Of a stretch of 36,587 nucleotides of DNA, positions 340-36,548 are shown piece after piece. Made by a program: the position numbers and the translations under genes. The notes beneath the pieces were generated by a model. It was not told the DNA's origin and ran no database searches. It saw only the letters and a program-made list of their open reading frames with translations. Every line of letters begins with the position of its first letter. The stretch's first letter is position 1. Origin of the DNA: a virus; IMG/VR virus record IMGVR_UViG_3300032322_002283, positions 1-36,587 of that record; one strand, written 5' to 3'.

Positions 340-365
340 GGGGTGGGCAAAACACCCCATTTTTT
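340..365 (+). terminator. Terminator-like hairpin GGGGTG/CACCCC with T-run
   Basis: GGGGTG (340-345), a 7-nt loop and CACCCC (353-358) are followed by A and six T (360-365). This has the form of a rho-independent terminator on the + strand. If the genome is circular it would stop readthrough from the integrase. It may instead be a palindromic operator between the two divergent RHH genes. Confidence 0.45.
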
Positions 366-367
366 GC

Positions 368-405
368 CTTGCCATGTCTTGCCATGCCTTGTTAAGTCTT
401 GGCGC
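368..405. promoter_or_regulatory. Tandem decamer operator between divergent RHH genes
   Basis: Four successive units start with CTTG at exactly 10-bp steps (368, 378, 388, 398). The first two are CTTGCCATGT and CTTGCCATGC; the last two are degenerate. Repeats with one-helical-turn period next to RHH genes are the classic layout for cooperative RHH dimer binding (MetJ/Arc/CopG families). On the opposite strand the units read ATGGCAAG, resembling the GGC-rich array at 6.1-6.6 kb. Confidence 0.5.
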
Positions 406-2920: not shown

Positions 2921-3481
2921 ATGGAGACGAACCAAGAGAGCGTGTCAAAACCACGCAAGCAGATATGCAGCGCCCTCGTCAAGGCCCAGAAGGGCTTTGG
3001 CCCGGCGCTCAAGAGTAGCCAGAACCCGCACTTCAAGAGCCGCTATGCCGACCTGTCGGCCTGCGTTGAGGCGGTGGTCGAGGCGCTCAACAACAACGGC
3101 ATCGCGCTAACTCAGCACACGCACCACGCCGAGCACGGCGTTTGTGTCGAGACGATCCTAATCCACGAGTCGGGCGAGGAGTTGAGCTTCGGCAAGCTCT
3201 TCGTGCCTTCAAGCAAGAATGACGCGCAGGGCTACGGCTCGGCGCTAACCTACGCCCGCCGCTACAGCCTCATGGCCGCGTGCGGCCTTGCTCCCGAGGA
3301 CGATGACGGCAACGCAGCGAGCTCATCCGCCCCGCGCATCATTTCCAAGGATCTGGCCAAAGGCACCACGACTTACGCGGCCAGGCCGAAACCAACACCG
3401 CGCACAACGGACGAGTTTCCCGTGGAACGTCCGACCAAAGCAAAACCCGTCGAGGCCGACGATGACCGCATCCCGTTTTAA
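2921..3481 (+). CDS. erf: ERF-family single-strand annealing protein
   Basis: A 186-aa protein with the ERF signature: PHFKSRYADLSACVEAV, then a GIALTQ strand, then YGSALTYARRYSLMAACGLAPEDDDGNAA. ERF proteins anneal complementary single strands during phage recombination and genome circularisation. The C-terminus is a linker followed by an acidic DDRIPF tip, like the partner-binding tail of SSB proteins. The same kind of tip ends the next gene. The start is preceded by an ACACACACA-rich leader without a Shine-Dalgarno site. Together with the downstream nuclease this is a Red-like recombination set. Confidence 0.85.
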   Translation: METNQESVSKPRKQICSALVKAQKGFGPALKSSQNPHFKSRYADLSACVEAVVEALNNNGIALTQHTHHAEHGVCVETILIHESGEELSFGKLFVPSSKNDAQGYGSALTYARRYSLMAACGLAPEDDDGNAASSSAPRIISKDLAKGTTTYAARPKPTPRTTDEFPVERPTKAKPVEADDDRIPF

Positions 3482-5082: not shown

Positions 5083-5393
5083 CCGAGCAACTCGAACTCC
5101 TGCCGGCGCACCCGGACGAGCACCTGTTCCCTTACTGGCGCCAGCAGTTGGCCGCCTGGCCGTGCGATGTGTTCCAGTTCCGCAATATGCCCGAGACCAC
5201 CGGCTGGTCGATGGCGACCCAAAAGATGTGCTTTGCTCGGTGGCTTTTCGGCGCCGGTGAGATGAGCCGCGCGGAGTTCTGGCGCTGGGCGCGGTTTAAC
5301 CGGCGGGTGAGGCGGAGGGATGAGGCCGACATGACTTTTAGCAATTTGCCTACGGGCGAAACCAAGAAACACACAAACACAACACACACATGA
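5079..5393 (+). CDS. Hypothetical early phage protein
   Basis: A 104-aa protein from GTG 5079, overlapping its upstream neighbour by 4 nt. It is rich in Trp/Phe/Arg (YWRQQLAAWPCDVFQFRNMP, FWRWARFNRRVRRRDEADM) and ends in a Thr/His/Lys tail. That tail is encoded by the CA-rich leader of the next gene, so the last codons may serve as leader rather than protein function. No family recognised. Confidence 0.55.
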   Translation: MTEQLELLPAHPDEHLFPYWRQQLAAWPCDVFQFRNMPETTGWSMATQKMCFARWLFGAGEMSRAEFWRWARFNRRVRRRDEADMTFSNLPTGETKKHTNTTHT

Positions 5394-6022
5394 GCAAGAA
5401 CACGAAAGAAGAAAACGTGACGATCAAGGCGCCGTCAATATCGACAGCCGCTTTTAAGATCGTTGGCACATCACCCTACATCCAACTGCGATTCTCGCAA
5501 AAGGCCATCGAAACGATGATGGCGAAAATGGCGGCTGGATCGCAGGCAAACAAAAAGAAGGCCCGCGAGGCCCGCGATTTCGACGCGGACTTTGAGGCGG
5601 CAAAACACATTAGCACGGAAGGATGGTGCGGCATCCCGGCATCCGCTTTCCGCAACGCGCTTATCTCGGCCTGCCGTCTGGTCGGCTTCAAGATGACGCT
5701 CGCCAAGCTGTCGCTATTCACCGAGGCCGATGGCTTCGACATCGTGGACGCGGTGCCGCTCATCAAGATCGAGGGCGAGGCCGAGAAGCACATCATGCAC
5801 GCGCGCAACGCCACGGGCGTCTGCGACTTGCGGGTGCGGGCGAAATTCTGGCCTTGGTCGGCCAACGTGCGCGTGAGCTACGACACCGACCAGTTCAGCG
5901 CCACCGATGTCGCCAACCTCCTGCAACGTGTCGGCCAACAGGTCGGCATCGGCGAGGGGCGCAACGACAGCAAAATGTCGGCCGGCATGGGCTGGGGCAA
6001 CTTCACGCTGGCAACGGAATAG
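5390..6022 (+). CDS. Conserved phage protein with Cas7/RAMP-like features
   Basis: A 210-aa protein. It has a GTSPYIQ strand near residue 27, GIPASAFRNALISACRLVGF near residues 81-100, and a C-terminal GxGxGxF-like ending (VGIGEGRNDSKMSAGMGWGNF). The pattern is familiar from an uncharacterised phage family next to ERF/SSB genes. The ferredoxin-like layout and Gly-rich C-terminal loop recall Cas7/RAMP proteins, but I see no crRNA-related partner, so this is only a resemblance. It may be a nucleic-acid-binding component of the recombination module. It follows a CA-rich leader. Confidence 0.55.
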   Translation: MSKNTKEENVTIKAPSISTAAFKIVGTSPYIQLRFSQKAIETMMAKMAAGSQANKKKAREARDFDADFEAAKHISTEGWCGIPASAFRNALISACRLVGFKMTLAKLSLFTEADGFDIVDAVPLIKIEGEAEKHIMHARNATGVCDLRVRAKFWPWSANVRVSYDTDQFSATDVANLLQRVGQQVGIGEGRNDSKMSAGMGWGNFTLATE

Positions 6023-6093
6023 CAAAACGCTGCCATGAACAATTTCGCCACGGCCAACAATCCAACTGCTGCGCGCTCCGTGGGGCGCGTGAA

Positions 6094-6595
6094 GCCTACG
6101 CAGGCAAGGTTAGGCCGCGCGAGGTCTGGCGTGCCACGATCCGGCAACGCAGGCAAGGCGGGTCAAGGCTCGGCGTGGCTTGGAATGGGAACGCAGGCAC
6201 GACGAGGCACGGTCTGGCTTGGCATGGTTTGGCCAAGCAACGCAGGCATGGCCTGGCGCGGCAAGGCTTGGCAAGGTGGCGCTCGGATTAGCGCGGCGCG
6301 GACAGGCAACGCAGGCAAGGTTGGGCAATGCGAGGCGCGGCATAATGCGGCGAAGCAGGCTTGGCTAGGCATGTCGGGGATCGGCAAGTCATGCAATGGC
6401 AACGCAGGTGTGGTTCGGCGTAGCACGGGTAGGCGGAGTATGGCAGCGCAGGCTAGGCGCGGCACCGCTGGGCTTGGCCTCGAGGGGCCCGGCAAGGCAA
6501 CGCAGGCAGGGCAGAGCGAGGTTCGGCAAGGCTGGGCACGGCAACGCAGGCAAGGGCTGGCCAGGCGGGGCCAGGCAGGGCAACGCAGCGCAGGC
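6094..6595 (+). repeat. G-rich direct-repeat array, core GGCAACGCAGGCAAGG
   Basis: Core copies begin near 6094, 6143, 6187, 6236, 6305, 6349 (degenerate), 6398, 6442, 6496, 6540 and 6579. Successive steps are mostly 44-54 bp. Sequence between cores is a patchwork of NNGGC pentamers (aaGGC, ttGGC, atGGC, gcGGC) on the same strand. Cores fall in different reading frames, so protein coding does not explain them. The region 6023-6729 has no convincing gene. Placement between recombination and replication genes suggests an origin, partition-like or recombination-stimulating site; function is unknown. Confidence 0.75.
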
Positions 6596-6679
6596 GGCGA
6601 TAGGCAGGTCCGGGCAAGACCGGGCGCGGCGAGGGGAGGCTTGGCATTACACGACACAAACCGGGGAGCGCGACCGGGG

Positions 6680-6685
6680 TATAAA
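6680..6685 (+). promoter_or_regulatory. Candidate -10 element upstream of the 6730 gene
   Basis: TATAAA at 6680-6685 stands out in GC-rich DNA about 45 nt before ATG 6730. Directly upstream is a repeated CCGGGG (6661-6666 and 6674-6679), possibly an activator or repressor site. No good -35 is visible, so the promoter call is tentative. Confidence 0.35.
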
Positions 6686-6729
6686 TTGCGCTCACTTTTT
6701 GCAGACAACAACAAAATAGAAAGAGAACC

Positions 6730-7221
6730 ATGATTAGCCTATTAGAACCACAACGCGGGTCGCTGACCCGTAACGACGAAATCCGCAAGGAACTGACCGC
6801 GATCGCCGCGGGCAAACGGGGACTGACGCCGCAAAGCGTGCTGTCCGTAGCGAAGAACCCGCGCTCGCTGTTGCACAACTACTTCTGCTGGGATGACTCG
6901 GAGGCGGCGCGTAAATACCGGGAGTTCCAAGCCTACGAGTTGATCCGGCGAGTCAAAGTGACGATCGAGACTCCGGAAAACAAGACGCTGACCATCCGCG
7001 CGTTTTGGCCGGTGAAGCAAGTTGCAGCCGATGGCACGATCGACACGGCGAGCCGCGGATCGTATCTGCCACTGGCGGACGCGATGCAGAATGAGGCGGC
7101 CCTCGAGCAGATTGTGGCTGCGGCAAAGTCGGAGTTGCGGGCCTTTACGGTCAAATACTCGCAACTGGAGCGCGTGATGGAGATGAGCAACGTGTTCGAG
7201 GCGATCAGGGAGGTGGTCTAA
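6730..7221 (+). CDS. Conserved phage hypothetical protein, replication region
   Basis: A 163-aa protein. It contains LTPQSVLSVAKNPRSLLHNYFCWDDSEAARKYREFQAYELIRRV, a pattern seen in many uncharacterised phage proteins of about 160 aa near replication genes, then a beta-rich middle and a helical C-terminus with SELRAFTVKYSQLERVMEM. First gene after the repeat array. Its leader is A-rich (ACAACAACAAAATAG). Only 4 nt separate it from the replication-type gene. No biochemical role is known to me. Confidence 0.6.
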   Translation: MISLLEPQRGSLTRNDEIRKELTAIAAGKRGLTPQSVLSVAKNPRSLLHNYFCWDDSEAARKYREFQAYELIRRVKVTIETPENKTLTIRAFWPVKQVAADGTIDTASRGSYLPLADAMQNEAALEQIVAAAKSELRAFTVKYSQLERVMEMSNVFEAIREVV

Positions 7222-7225
7222 TCGC

Positions 7226-8092
7226 ATGGCCGGCGATTGGATTAAAATGCGCTGCAATCTGGACACGGACCCCGCCGTGTTCCAGATGGCAGCGGCGCTC
7301 CAGATGGACGAGCTGGCCGTGGTCGGCCGGCTTTGGAAGGTCTGGGCGTGGGCTGATCAGCATATCGCAGATTGTAACGCTGTGAGCGTTACAACAAATG
7401 TGCTGGACCGCATCACGACCACACCGGGTTTCGCCGAGGCGATGCGAAAGGTGGGCTGGTTGGAGGGCCGCGAGGGCGCCCTGTCCTTCCCGCACTTTGA
7501 CCGTCACAACGGCCAAACAGCTAAGAAGAGGGCACTTACGAAGAATCGCGTCGAGAAAACGCGGGGCGATTCTGTAACGCTCCCAGCGTTACAAGAGCGT
7601 TACCAGAGAAGAGAAGAGAAGAGTATAGATAGCACAGTAATGAGCGGGGTGGGGTTTGGGCTTGATGAGGTCGTCGAGGCCGGCAGACGCGCCAGCATCC
7701 CGGAGGACGTGTGCCGCGCCTACCACGACGACCGCGAGGGAGCGGGGTGGATGGACGGAAAGGGCCGGCCGGTGCGCTCGATGCCGCATGACTTGTCGGG
7801 ATTCTGGCGCAAGTGGCAAAGCAACCGCAGCCAGAAGCAATTCGGCAACGGGCAGGTGAACGGCCACAACGGCAGCCCGAAGCCAACCGAGGGCGTGTGG
7901 CACCTTGAGAAGCGGATCGAGGCCGCGCAGAAGGAGATCGACCGCATCCAGGCCAACCCAGCGAACAAGGAGCAGGTGCCCGACTCGTTTGACCGGCGGC
8001 TTAAGGCCGAGCCGATGGCCAAGGTTAAGGCACTCAAGGCCAGCATCAGCGAAATGCGGCAGCGCATGGCGGGAGTGGAGGTGGCGGCGTGA
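7226..8092 (+). CDS. Phage replication protein (DnaD/primosome-like N-terminus)
   Basis: A 288-aa protein. The N-terminal 110 residues (GDWIKMRCNLDTDPAVFQMA, VVGRLWKVWAWADQH, PGFAEAMRKVGWLE, FPHFDRHNGQTAKKRA) match a winged-helix family common at the start of phage replication initiators. The middle is a polar linker, and the C-terminus is a coiled coil (LEKRIEAAQKEIDRIQANP, MAKVKALKASISEMRQRM). Likely an origin-binding or helicase-loading protein. The repeat array 0.6 kb upstream could be its target. Overlaps the next gene by 4 nt. Confidence 0.6.
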   Translation: MAGDWIKMRCNLDTDPAVFQMAAALQMDELAVVGRLWKVWAWADQHIADCNAVSVTTNVLDRITTTPGFAEAMRKVGWLEGREGALSFPHFDRHNGQTAKKRALTKNRVEKTRGDSVTLPALQERYQRREEKSIDSTVMSGVGFGLDEVVEAGRRASIPEDVCRAYHDDREGAGWMDGKGRPVRSMPHDLSGFWRKWQSNRSQKQFGNGQVNGHNGSPKPTEGVWHLEKRIEAAQKEIDRIQANPANKEQVPDSFDRRLKAEPMAKVKALKASISEMRQRMAGVEVAA

Positions 8093-17312: not shown

Positions 17313-19121
17313 ATGGAGAAACAAAGCCCGCGCGAGCAGATCGCGCTTTGCGTCATCGTGGGGAACGAGCCGAAGCGGCTCGACAAATGCCTCACCCTCT
17401 TCGCCCCCGCCGTCAGCGAAATGGTCGTTGTCCACGCAACCGGCGCCGAGGCCAAGAGCATCAAAATTGCCGAGGTGTGCCAGAAGCACGGCGCGACCTA
17501 CGATGTCTATGCCAACGCCCCCGGCAACGAATGGCCTCACGTCGACGACTTCGGCGGCGCCCGCCAGCGGTCCTTCGACCTCGCCAGCAAGCCTTGGGCG
17601 CTGTGGGTAGACGCCGACGATACGCCGGGACCAAACTTCGCATCCGCCCTCCACGAGTTGCTCGAGAAGCACGGCGAGAACTTCGACGCCTTCGCCCTCT
17701 ACCACAACGTCGCCGGCCGCGGCATCGCCCACAACATCCGCGAGCGCCTTGTCCGCCGGGACAAAGGCAAATGGGTCAACCGCATCCACGAGAACTTCCA
17801 ACTCGCCCCCGACGCCCGCATCGCCAAGTGCGACGAGCCGATCGTGGTGCACTTGCCCGACGATGAGCCCAAGCAGGGCAGCAATCGCAACCTCACCATC
17901 CTCGAAAGCATCCCCGAGGCCGAGCGCACCGTCAGCGAACTCTATCACCTGCATGGCGAATACATGGGCGCCGGCCGCAAGAACGACGCCATGGCCTTGG
18001 CAAAGCAAGCCCTCGCGCACCCCGACCTCAAGCCCACCGAACGCTACGAGCTTTGCCTCAACATCTGCGAACTGGCCCGCCCGCCCATCCTTGAGACCGG
18101 CACCCCCGAGCACACCGCCATGCTCACCGCGCTCCACAGCGCCTACCGCACCCAGCCCAACCGCCGCGAAGCCTTGGCCCTCCTCGGCGCCATGCACCTC
18201 GACCTCGGCGACTTGGAAAGGGCCGAAGCCTATTTGCGCTGCATGATGGCCCTCCCGCGCCCCGCGGAAAAACCCTGGACCCACCGCGACGGCCTCTACG
18301 GGTGGGCAGGGGAAACCCTCTGGACGCAATTTCTCCGCATGATCGGCGACCTCGACAAAGCCGACGGCATCGAGCGCGCCCGGCTCCAGGCGCAAAAGGA
18401 ACCCACCATCAGCATCATCCATCCGACCCGCGGCCGCCCCGAGCAAGCCGCCGTGGTGCGGAAGATGTTTTTGGACAACGCCAAAAACCCCGAACGCATC
18501 GAGCACATCTTCGGCCTGGAAGCCGACAGCCCCGACTTCCCCATCCTCGGCCGCTTCCGCCACGCCACCTCGCCCGCGGGGAATCTCGCACAAACCAACT
18601 GCGTTGCCGCCGCCAACGCCGCGGCCCGCGCCTCCACCGGCGACATCCTCATCTACGCCCAGGACGATCTGGCCCCACCACCGCTGCATTGGGACGAAGC
18701 CATCGTGCAAGCCCTGGGCGGCGACGTCCGGCGCCCCGCCATGGTCTCCATCGGCGACGGCGTGCGCGACGACGAATTGCTTTGCACGCCCTGCCTCACC
18801 CGTCCCGCGGTCGAGGCCCTCGGCTATGACGGCGGCCTGTATTTCGACGGCTACCGCTCCATGTTTGCCGACACCGAACTGACCTGGCGTGCCGTGAAAA
18901 ACAAATGGCTGGTGTCCTCCGGTCTGGTCATCCGCCACTTGCACCCCACCGCCGGCGGCCCCGACCACGAAACCACGGCGCGCAGTAACTCGGTGGAAAA
19001 CTACCGCCAAGGCTTCGACCTCTTTTGCCGCCGCAACCCCGACTACCTCGAGGCCAACCCCAGCTTTGTCCCCGACACCGAGGCCATGTTCGCCGCCGCC
19101 GCGCATGATAAAAAACGCTGA
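17313..19121 (+). CDS. Two-domain glycosyltransferase with central TPR-like part
   Basis: A 602-aa protein. Residues 8-180 look like a GT2 family GT-A domain: ALCVIVGNEPKRLDKCL, then WALWVDADDTPG with the metal-binding DADD at 100-103. The middle (about 200-350) is helical, with TPR-like pairs (ALALLGAMHLDLGDLERAEAYL). From about 365 a second GT-A domain begins (ISIIHPTRGRPEQAAVV, GDILIYAQDDLAPPPLHWDEA). It lies between capsid and neck genes, so it may glycosylate a virion protein or alter host surface glycans. ATG 17313 is 17 nt after TTGACA. Confidence 0.8.
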   Translation: MEKQSPREQIALCVIVGNEPKRLDKCLTLFAPAVSEMVVVHATGAEAKSIKIAEVCQKHGATYDVYANAPGNEWPHVDDFGGARQRSFDLASKPWALWVDADDTPGPNFASALHELLEKHGENFDAFALYHNVAGRGIAHNIRERLVRRDKGKWVNRIHENFQLAPDARIAKCDEPIVVHLPDDEPKQGSNRNLTILESIPEAERTVSELYHLHGEYMGAGRKNDAMALAKQALAHPDLKPTERYELCLNICELARPPILETGTPEHTAMLTALHSAYRTQPNRREALALLGAMHLDLGDLERAEAYLRCMMALPRPAEKPWTHRDGLYGWAGETLWTQFLRMIGDLDKADGIERARLQAQKEPTISIIHPTRGRPEQAAVVRKMFLDNAKNPERIEHIFGLEADSPDFPILGRFRHATSPAGNLAQTNCVAAANAAARASTGDILIYAQDDLAPPPLHWDEAIVQALGGDVRRPAMVSIGDGVRDDELLCTPCLTRPAVEALGYDGGLYFDGYRSMFADTELTWRAVKNKWLVSSGLVIRHLHPTAGGPDHETTARSNSVENYRQGFDLFCRRNPDYLEANPSFVPDTEAMFAAAAHDKKR

Positions 19122-35436: not shown

Positions 35437-35494
35437 AAAGCCGCACAGGCCCAGACACTTACGCCGCTCCCGTGTCTTGGCTTGTTGCGGCTTT
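35437..35494. promoter_or_regulatory. Long inverted repeat between attP and integrase
   Basis: AAAGCCGCA (35437-35445) pairs with TGCGGCTTT (35486-35494), GCC (35449-35451) with GGC (35479-35481) and AGACAC (35453-35458) with GTGTCT (35472-35477). It is followed by TTTCTGTTT, so it may be the terminator of the restored tRNA-Ser after integration, or an integrase arm site. Confidence 0.5.
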
Positions 35495-35537
35495 CTGTTT
35501 GCCAATGTTGCTCCCAAAGCGTAGGTTTTTGGCAATT

Positions 35538-36548
35538 ATGGCAATGACCCGCAACATCAACCCTGTTCGCTTTCGCGTGCGGAGAGTGAGTTGGAACAAG
35601 TCGAACCCGTGGTGCTGCGACTTCTTTGCTTACAGTAAGCGGCTGCGGCACTTCTTTTCTTCGGAGGAGTTGGCTTGGGCGGAAGGGGCGAAGCTGACGG
35701 CGCGGGTGACTGAGCAGGGGACGCGGTCGCTTGATGACTCGGAGGGGCTGACCGTGAAGGCGGCGCTGCGGATGTTCGTTAATGAGGCGGACCCGCAGTC
35801 GGCCAGCCACGCGCAGAAGTTGGCCATTTTTGAAAAGGCGTTCGCCCGCGATTTCCGCGGGGCGGCCGGCAACATCGAGGCGGCGGCGCTGCGGAGATGG
35901 ATCAAGGGGCGGTCGGCCAACGGCAACACGCAAGCCATGTATTTCCGCTACGCCAAGATGTTTTTCCGCTATCTGGCCGCCAACCGGCTGGTGCCGCACG
36001 ACCCGATGACGGCCGTGCCGGCGCCGAAGACCAAGCCGCGGCGGGATATTCTGACCCCGGGGCAGATGAAGAAGTTGCTGGCCCTCGAGCTTCCCGACCA
36101 CGTGCGGGCGTTGCTGCTTTTGGGCGGTTTTGCGGGGCTTCGGACGGAAGAGGTGATGCGGATGGATTGGGCGAGCGTGAACGTAAAGGCGGGGCAGATC
36201 CATGTGCCGCCGGGCGCGATGAAAGATTCGGGCGGGTATGATGAGCGGATCGTGGATTTCACCGAGCCGCTCAACCGCCGCCGGGCGTGGCTGCGGAAGC
36301 AAAAAGGGCCGATCGTGCCGATGGCCTCGGAGACTTTCCACGGGCACCGACGGCGGGCGTGCGCTCCGGTGCTGCCAGAGTGGCCGGACAACTGCCTGCG
36401 GCATAGTTTCGCCACTTACCACCTAGGCCGAGCGAAGAACGCGGGGCTCACAGCGTTTCAGATGGGCCACACGGACGCGAAGATGGTGCAGCGGGTCTAT
36501 GCGGTGCCGGCGGCGCGGGCGGACTGGCGGGCCTGGTGGGCTATTTAA
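35538..36548 (+). CDS. int: Tyrosine site-specific integrase
   Basis: A 336-aa recombinase. The N-terminal SAM-like core-binding domain includes ANGNTQAMYFRYAKMFFRYLAANRLV (127-152). In the catalytic domain, R202 lies in GLRTEEVMRMDW, K229 in AMKD, R288 in NCLRHSF, H311 in MGHTD and the nucleophile Y321 in VYAV. The usual first His of HxxR is Asn (N285), a tolerated change in some integrases. I chose ATG 35538 because longer readings run into the inverted repeat at 35437-35494. It recombines the adjacent tRNA-Ser attP with the host attB. Confidence 0.9.
   Translation: MAMTRNINPVRFRVRRVSWNKSNPWCCDFFAYSKRLRHFFSSEELAWAEGAKLTARVTEQGTRSLDDSEGLTVKAALRMFVNEADPQSASHAQKLAIFEKAFARDFRGAAGNIEAAALRRWIKGRSANGNTQAMYFRYAKMFFRYLAANRLVPHDPMTAVPAPKTKPRRDILTPGQMKKLLALELPDHVRALLLLGGFAGLRTEEVMRMDWASVNVKAGQIHVPPGAMKDSGGYDERIVDFTEPLNRRRAWLRKQKGPIVPMASETFHGHRRRACAPVLPEWPDNCLRHSFATYHLGRAKNAGLTAFQMGHTDAKMVQRVYAVPAARADWRAWWAI

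What the first reader, a model, noticed from the sequence alone, without database searches (positions are those of the whole stretch)
6023..6729. 0.5-kb G-rich repeat array between recombination and replication genes
About 11 copies of a GGCAACGCAGGCAAGG-like core recur mainly at 44-49 bp, all in one orientation, in a matrix of NNGGC pentamers. Cores fall in different frames and both strands are open, so this is not ordinary coding. It could be a replication origin with iterons, a centromere-like site, a recombination hot spot for the ERF/nuclease pair, a packaging site or a structured RNA. I know no described family like it.
Basis: seen in the sequence. Interest (0 to 1): 0.82.

Follow-up and report, generated by a model that had tools for sequence, protein, structure and literature searches.

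The report
Phage VIPR guide-RNA array (vrRNA)
The odd G-rich repeat in this phage is most likely a bank of about eleven guide RNAs for VIPR, a newly described CRISPR-like weapon that phages use against rival phages; it is a new, unusually packed member of a kind first reported in a 2026 preprint, not a replication origin.

Summary
It is not coding and no origin evidence was found. It sits 76 bp behind gene 5390-6022, whose family profile matches the solved 'SUSP1 Vipr protein' (PDB 36pp, E=6.7e-38) and whose model matches Csm3/Cas7 RAMPs. That makes it a VIPR (Viral Interference Programmable Repeat) vrRNA array, described in a 2026 preprint (PMC13142463). About half of viral loci picked by the DNA pattern alone carry a Vipr-family gene next to the array. 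The array ends in an H-type pseudoknot tail supported by strong covariation. In sibling phages with a near-identical Vipr protein, guides differ but leader and tail are conserved. Guide 2, decoded by the published 1-nt-skip rule, spells the Walker A motif of phage D5/P4 primase-helicases; 113 IMG/VR contigs match versus 35 for a shuffled control (suggestive, picked after the fact). Differences from the characterised type II: 11 guides share one tail and are separated by slips; the neighbouring gene is not vap1. New member of a known kind; transcription and targeting untested here.

The parts
5390..6022 (+). vipr gene (210 aa; phrog_4652; RAMP/Cas7-like RNA-binding protein)
   Evidence: A1 profile vs PDB 36pp_D 'SUSP1 Vipr protein' E=6.7e-38; AF2 pLDDT 91, top Foldseek hits Csm3/Cas7 RAMPs of type III and VII CRISPR, E 8e-6, prob 1.00, modest TM about 0.4
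6023..6098 (+). conserved leader of the array (role unknown)
   Evidence: nearly invariant in siblings L246, L247 while most guide letters differ
6099..6647 (+). vrRNA array: 11 units of about 7-12 GGY-NN pentamers, separated by 1-nt 'A' slips (core GGCAACGCAGGC)
6152..6191 (+). guide unit 2: NN = AA GG AA TC GT TT AT AA, decodes (skip = wobble) to [NK]G[NK]SV[FL][IM][NK], Walker A of D5/P4 phage primase-helicases
   Evidence: 113 IMG/VR matches, 86 with skip at codon position 3 of the longest open frame, 58 in GxGx[NK]GKSV P-loops, D5_N/primase families; shuffled control 35 hits
6245..6309 (+). guide unit 4 (longest, 13 NN incl. terminal AA, several degenerate anchors)
   Evidence: seed search gave chance-level hits only
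6648..6693 (+). 3' tail: H-type pseudoknot, stem 1 6661-6664/6674-6677, stem 2 6666-6671/6688-6693
   Evidence: 21 tails, 95.2% cells paired vs 31-45% when slid; 41 double changes vs 12.4 shuffled
6730..7221 (+). candidate vipr-accessory gene (phrog_15946, 163 aa), often next to arrays; unrelated to the gene next to SUSP1 vipr
   Evidence: second commonest neighbour family, 35 flank entries; no fold match; no profile match to the SUSP1 neighbour gene

Best explanation
The repeat is the guide-RNA (vrRNA) array of a phage VIPR system. It is transcribed with the vipr operon; the RAMP-fold Vipr protein (5390-6022) coats the RNA by its GGY anchors, and the variable NN pairs of each unit recognise double-stranded DNA with one skipped base between pairs, probably silencing genes of competing phages. 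The one-base 'A' slips mark guide boundaries; one pseudoknot tail closes the whole array. Shown here: the grammar, the Vipr identity, the tail structure by covariation, guide hypervariability. Inferred from the preprint: transcription, RNA binding, the code, silencing. Inferred and only suggestive: guide 2 targets phage primase-helicase genes. How single guides are released from a one-tail array is unknown.
For: Vipr profile match 6.7e-38 to PDB 36pp; RAMP fold; GGY/NN grammar as in the preprint; of 96 loci fetched by the (GGCNN)8 DNA pattern alone, 44 have a Vipr-family gene within 300 bp of the array; pseudoknot tail with covariation, of the same topology as seen by eye in the SUSP1 vrRNA tails; sibling L247 has Vipr 209/210 identical yet differs in guides, leader and tail conserved; guides duplicate and change in NN only (L258, L259); guide 2 matches Walker A codons with skip at wobble in 86/113 hits; a guide of L147/L159 matches 9 consecutive NN in a Sak4 gene in L028 with skip at codon position 3.
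Against: No RNA or binding data for this phage. A test of 491 guides against about 2.6 Mb of fetched loci showed no excess for the 1-nt skip over other skips or shuffles, though that set is small and not a sample of likely targets. Guide 2 was picked for scanning after its decoded peptide looked like a P-loop, so its enrichment has no clean p-value; P-loop triples are not enriched among all guides (2 vs 4 expected). Unit 4 and one L258 guide gave no target. Many anchors in this array are degenerate (GTC, GGA, AGC), so some units may be dead. The L028 match is of a kind of which about 0.1 are expected by chance in that search (my estimate).
Confidence: 0.93

Rival explanations
1. Iteron-type replication origin bound by the downstream replication protein (7226-8092).
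For: Neighbour 7226 is a phage replication initiation protein by PHROGs; repeats lie upstream of it.
Against: The recurrent partner of such arrays in unrelated phages is Vipr, in mycobacteriophages next to other genes; repeat letters are hypervariable at NN, unlike iterons; several arrays with own tails flank single genes in one contig; no GC-skew sign switch at the array.
Confidence: 0.02
2. Protein-coding low-complexity gene (ORF 6035-6733, 232 aa, ATGA overlap with the next gene).
For: Open from a conserved ATG in three siblings.
Against: Lengths 232, 189, 334 aa; one runs into the next gene; peptide differs wherever guides differ; 22 of 95 arrays have no open sense frame; 5n-1 slips shift frames; no phrog, and only a sub-cutoff Pfam match.
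Confidence: 0.02
3. Recombination hot spot or cassette boundary for the Erf/exonuclease pair.
For: Erf and exonuclease VIII-like genes lie upstream; arrays flank single genes and guides differ between siblings, so repeats may recombine.
Against: Does not explain the pseudoknot tail, the strand bias or the Vipr partner; at most a side effect.
Confidence: 0.03
4. A decayed VIPR array (compatible with the best explanation): most units are non-functional relics and only a few guides act.
For: Only 56-88% of anchors per unit in the body of the array are GGY, against about 100% in relatives L249-L262.
Against: Leader, tail, slip rule and Vipr are intact; Vipr is unchanged at protein level in siblings despite about 6% DNA change, so it is under selection.
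Confidence: 0.25

Closest known systems
VIPR type II of Escherichia phage SUSP1 (PMC13142463; PDB 36pp)
   Same: Vipr RAMP protein; alternating GGY/NN vrRNA co-oriented with vipr; 3' tail with interleaved stems and an A/U-rich linker; phage-encoded
   Different: SUSP1 vrRNAs have 11-15 clear repeats (one shorter), mostly GGT, and each its own tail; here 11 units mostly GGC, split by 1-nt A slips, share one tail; the gene next to vipr is unrelated to the SUSP1 one
VIPR 'staggered arrays with overlapping vrRNAs' (PMC13142463 fig. S18)
   Same: Possibly this very architecture
   Different: Cannot be compared: the supplement could not be read
Class 1 CRISPR RAMPs (Csm3/Cas7)
   Same: Fold and G-loop; guide RNA bound at regular steps
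   Different: No cas operon, no palindromic repeats or contiguous spacers, single small RRM protein
VIPR-like loci of cluster F mycobacteriophages (Saal, Quico, ByChance) and Gordonia phages
   Same: Vipr homologue 31-36% identical; the mycobacteriophages also show the GGC-NN array with GGCA slips
   Different: Array upstream of vipr; different 3' end without the window's tail motif; Gordonia arrays not examined

Membership tests
VIPR system | Vipr protein: single RRM-like RAMP homologue | tested here: met
   E=6.7e-38 to PDB 36pp_D; Foldseek hits to Csm3/Cas7
VIPR system | Intergenic sequence of alternating GGY/NN repeats next to vipr | tested here: met
VIPR system | NN hypervariable, GGY conserved | tested here: met
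   sibling comparison and unit lists
VIPR system | 3' tail with conserved secondary structure (pseudoknot in the SUSP1 clade) | tested here: met
   covariation in 21 tails
VIPR system | vipr-accessory (vap) gene | tested here: inconclusive
   6730-7221 recurs next to arrays but no link to a named vap; unrelated to the SUSP1 neighbour gene
VIPR system | DNA targets read with 1-nt skip | tested here: inconclusive
   guide 2 and L147 guide fit; bulk test shows no excess
VIPR system | vrRNA expressed and bound by Vipr | not testable with these tools
   needs sRNA-seq and pull-down
VIPR type II | each vrRNA carries its own tail | tested here: not met
   one tail for 11 units against one per vrRNA in SUSP1
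CRISPR-Cas class 1 | direct repeats with contiguous spacers and cas genes | tested here: not met
   no such repeats; no cas genes among the searched neighbours
Iteron replication origin | constant repeats at a fixed place beside rep, kept in relatives | tested here: not met
   NN hypervariable; arrays follow Vipr rather than rep

The most novel reading that the evidence does not exclude
A VIPR array type not yet described: many guides packed head to tail behind one shared pseudoknot tail, with a one-base 'A' slip as the only guide boundary, so that guides are released or read by a mechanism other than the one-tail-per-guide layout, and with guides turning over by duplication and NN mutation without an integrase.
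Probability: 0.35. Interest if true: 0.75.

Novelty: new member of a known kind. Interest (0 to 1): 0.6.

Why it matters
VIPR is a brand-new RNA-guided system thought to predate CRISPR. This window shows it in a probably temperate phage carrying an eleven-guide, slip-delimited array. Sibling phages with an almost identical Vipr but different guides make guide turnover without Cas1-like integration directly testable. Guide 2 yields a concrete prediction, phage primase-helicase genes at the Walker A codons, where skipping the wobble base would make escape by synonymous change hard. It also shows that well-studied cluster F mycobacteriophages carry the same kind of array beside a 'hypothetical protein', so genetics can be done now.

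Tried and rejected
Coding ORF 6035-6733. Rfam: only sub-threshold snoRNA noise. Promoter/terminator scan: none on the + strand. Exact core GGCAACGCAGGCAAGG in viral contigs: mostly single chance hits, about 15 true arrays. Bulk target search with 491 guides and 0-3 nt skips: no excess. Unit 4 seed: 27 hits, flanks do not extend. L258 9-NN seed: no hit. L153 guide in L148: 9 NN but G+C-rich and probably not at wobble phase, rejected. NN composition is nearest to codon positions 1-2 (KL 0.10-0.11) but barely better than uniform (0.12-0.13): inconclusive. Decay of 5' units: mostly not significant. Window self-target of guide 2: none. Structure of 6730-7221: no fold match. Host: relatives cannot be drawn for a virus record; the only genome hit is an Acidobacteria MAG contig. 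P-loop triples are not enriched among guides.

Full report
What is there. The array is real and highly non-random. GGCnnGGC occurs 27 times in 6023-6729 against 3.0 in dinucleotide shuffles, and the boundary motif 11 times against 1.85. Parsed as GGY anchors followed by two free letters, the stretch 6099-6647 falls into 11 units of roughly 7 to 12 pentamers; each unit ends in a single A instead of two letters ((G/C/A)GC-A-GGY), usually after NN = AA. All spacings between cores are 4 mod 5. Over the family the one-letter spacer is A in 255 of 264 cases. Nothing similar occurs elsewhere in the window or on the other strand.

It is widespread and tied to one protein family. Of 167 distinct arrays, 102 have both neighbouring genes on the G-rich strand and 4 have both opposed (gene calls are my own simple ones). 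Of 96 loci chosen by DNA alone, 44 have a member of one protein family within 300 bp, and this family, phrog_4652, is the window's 5390-6022 gene. Nearly all relatives of that gene found by protein search carry an array just downstream.

The protein is Vipr. A profile of 51 members matches PDB 36pp, 'SUSP1 Vipr protein', E=6.7e-38, over nearly its whole length. Independently, the AlphaFold2 model (pLDDT 91) finds Csm3/Cas7 RAMP subunits of type III and VII CRISPR as top solved structures (probability 1.00, modest TM-scores about 0.4). The preprint PMC13142463 describes VIPR: Vipr plus vrRNAs of alternating GGY/NN, in which NN pairs recognise dsDNA with one skipped base per step, usually at codon wobble positions, repressing competing phages.

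Anatomy compared. I fetched the SUSP1 locus: its vrRNAs have 11-15 clear repeats (one shorter), mostly GGT, each followed by its own tail, e.g. GGGTAGTTAGTCTCAGCTACATTAAAATGAGAC. In the window one tail (6648-6693) closes the array. In 21 family tails two interleaved stems (CCGG or CCGC with partner; GAGCGC with GCGCTC and equivalents) pair in 95.2% of cells against 31-45% when slid, with 41 double changes against 12.4 in shuffles. The tails were collected with a sequence pattern that fixes parts of stem 1, but stem 2, which varies most, was not constrained by it. The SUSP1 tail seems to have the same topology by eye. So the window shares the tail idea but has a multi-guide, single-tail, slip-delimited layout. 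Whether this is the preprint's 'staggered arrays with overlapping vrRNAs' could not be checked because supplements were closed.

Guides vary as guides should. Sibling records L246 and L247 have Vipr proteins 210/210 and 209/210 identical to the window's (DNA about 94%), with conserved leader and tail, but different guides; L246 and L247 share their 5' units and differ towards the tail. Elsewhere guides are duplicated and then differ in NN only (L258, L259). A trend to decayed anchors at the 5' end exists but is mostly not significant.

Targets. Read with skip at the wobble base, guide 2 (6152-6191) spells [NK]G[NK]SV[FL][IM][NK]. Its pattern matches 113 IMG/VR contigs; the same pairs in shuffled order match 35. 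In 86 of the 113 the longest open frame puts the skip at codon position 3, 58 lie in GxGx[NK]GKSV P-loops, and the 20 most G+C-rich hits all have the primase-type P-loop; three tested genes are D5_N primase-helicases. This is a sensible prey: a replication gene the window phage itself does not seem to use. But I noticed the P-loop before scanning, 11 guides were on offer, and a conserved motif will always collect hits, so I call it a prediction. A second case, a guide of L147/L159, matches 9 consecutive NN in a Sak4 annealing gene, again with wobble skips. A bulk test on fetched loci showed no excess.

Verdict. A VIPR vrRNA array, confidence 0.93 for membership; about 0.4 that guide 2 really targets phage primases.

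Noticed in passing
L120-L122 (Mycobacterium phages Saal, Quico, ByChance), about 2980-3230: Cluster F mycobacteriophages carry a GGC-NN array with GGCA slips upstream of a 'hypothetical protein' that is a Vipr homologue; Gordonia phages (ODay, Pipp, UmaThurman, Ecliptus) also encode it. The preprint's main text does not mention mycobacteria.
   Followed up: partly
L242 2261-4137, L225 1312-3335, L057 5044-6168, L264 5720-6894: Two or three arrays per contig alternate with single genes (vipr and the phrog_15946 gene); in L242 and L057 two arrays each have their own pseudoknot tail.
   Followed up: partly
L258 1624-1950 and L259 1640-1861: Neighbouring guides are near-copies that differ only at NN letters, suggesting duplication followed by NN mutation as a way to make new guides.
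   Followed up: no
L144, L188, L221, L240 (neighbours of arrays): A third small protein family (about 145-192 aa, 'DLVTYEEIGEAIG' type) flanks several arrays; possibly another accessory gene.
   Followed up: no
L130 6331-7019 and L031 6725-8007: Very long arrays (about 140 pentamers in L130, 135 GGC pairs in L031); L130 has almost no slips, so there guides must be delimited otherwise.
   Followed up: no
window 364-392: Short TGCCTTGCCA/TTGCCATGCCATG repeat whose reverse complement reads as GGC-NN pentamers.
   Followed up: no
window 35472-36548 and 17313-19121: Integrase (phrog_1), so the phage is probably temperate, and a glycosyltransferase-like gene inside the structural region.
   Followed up: no
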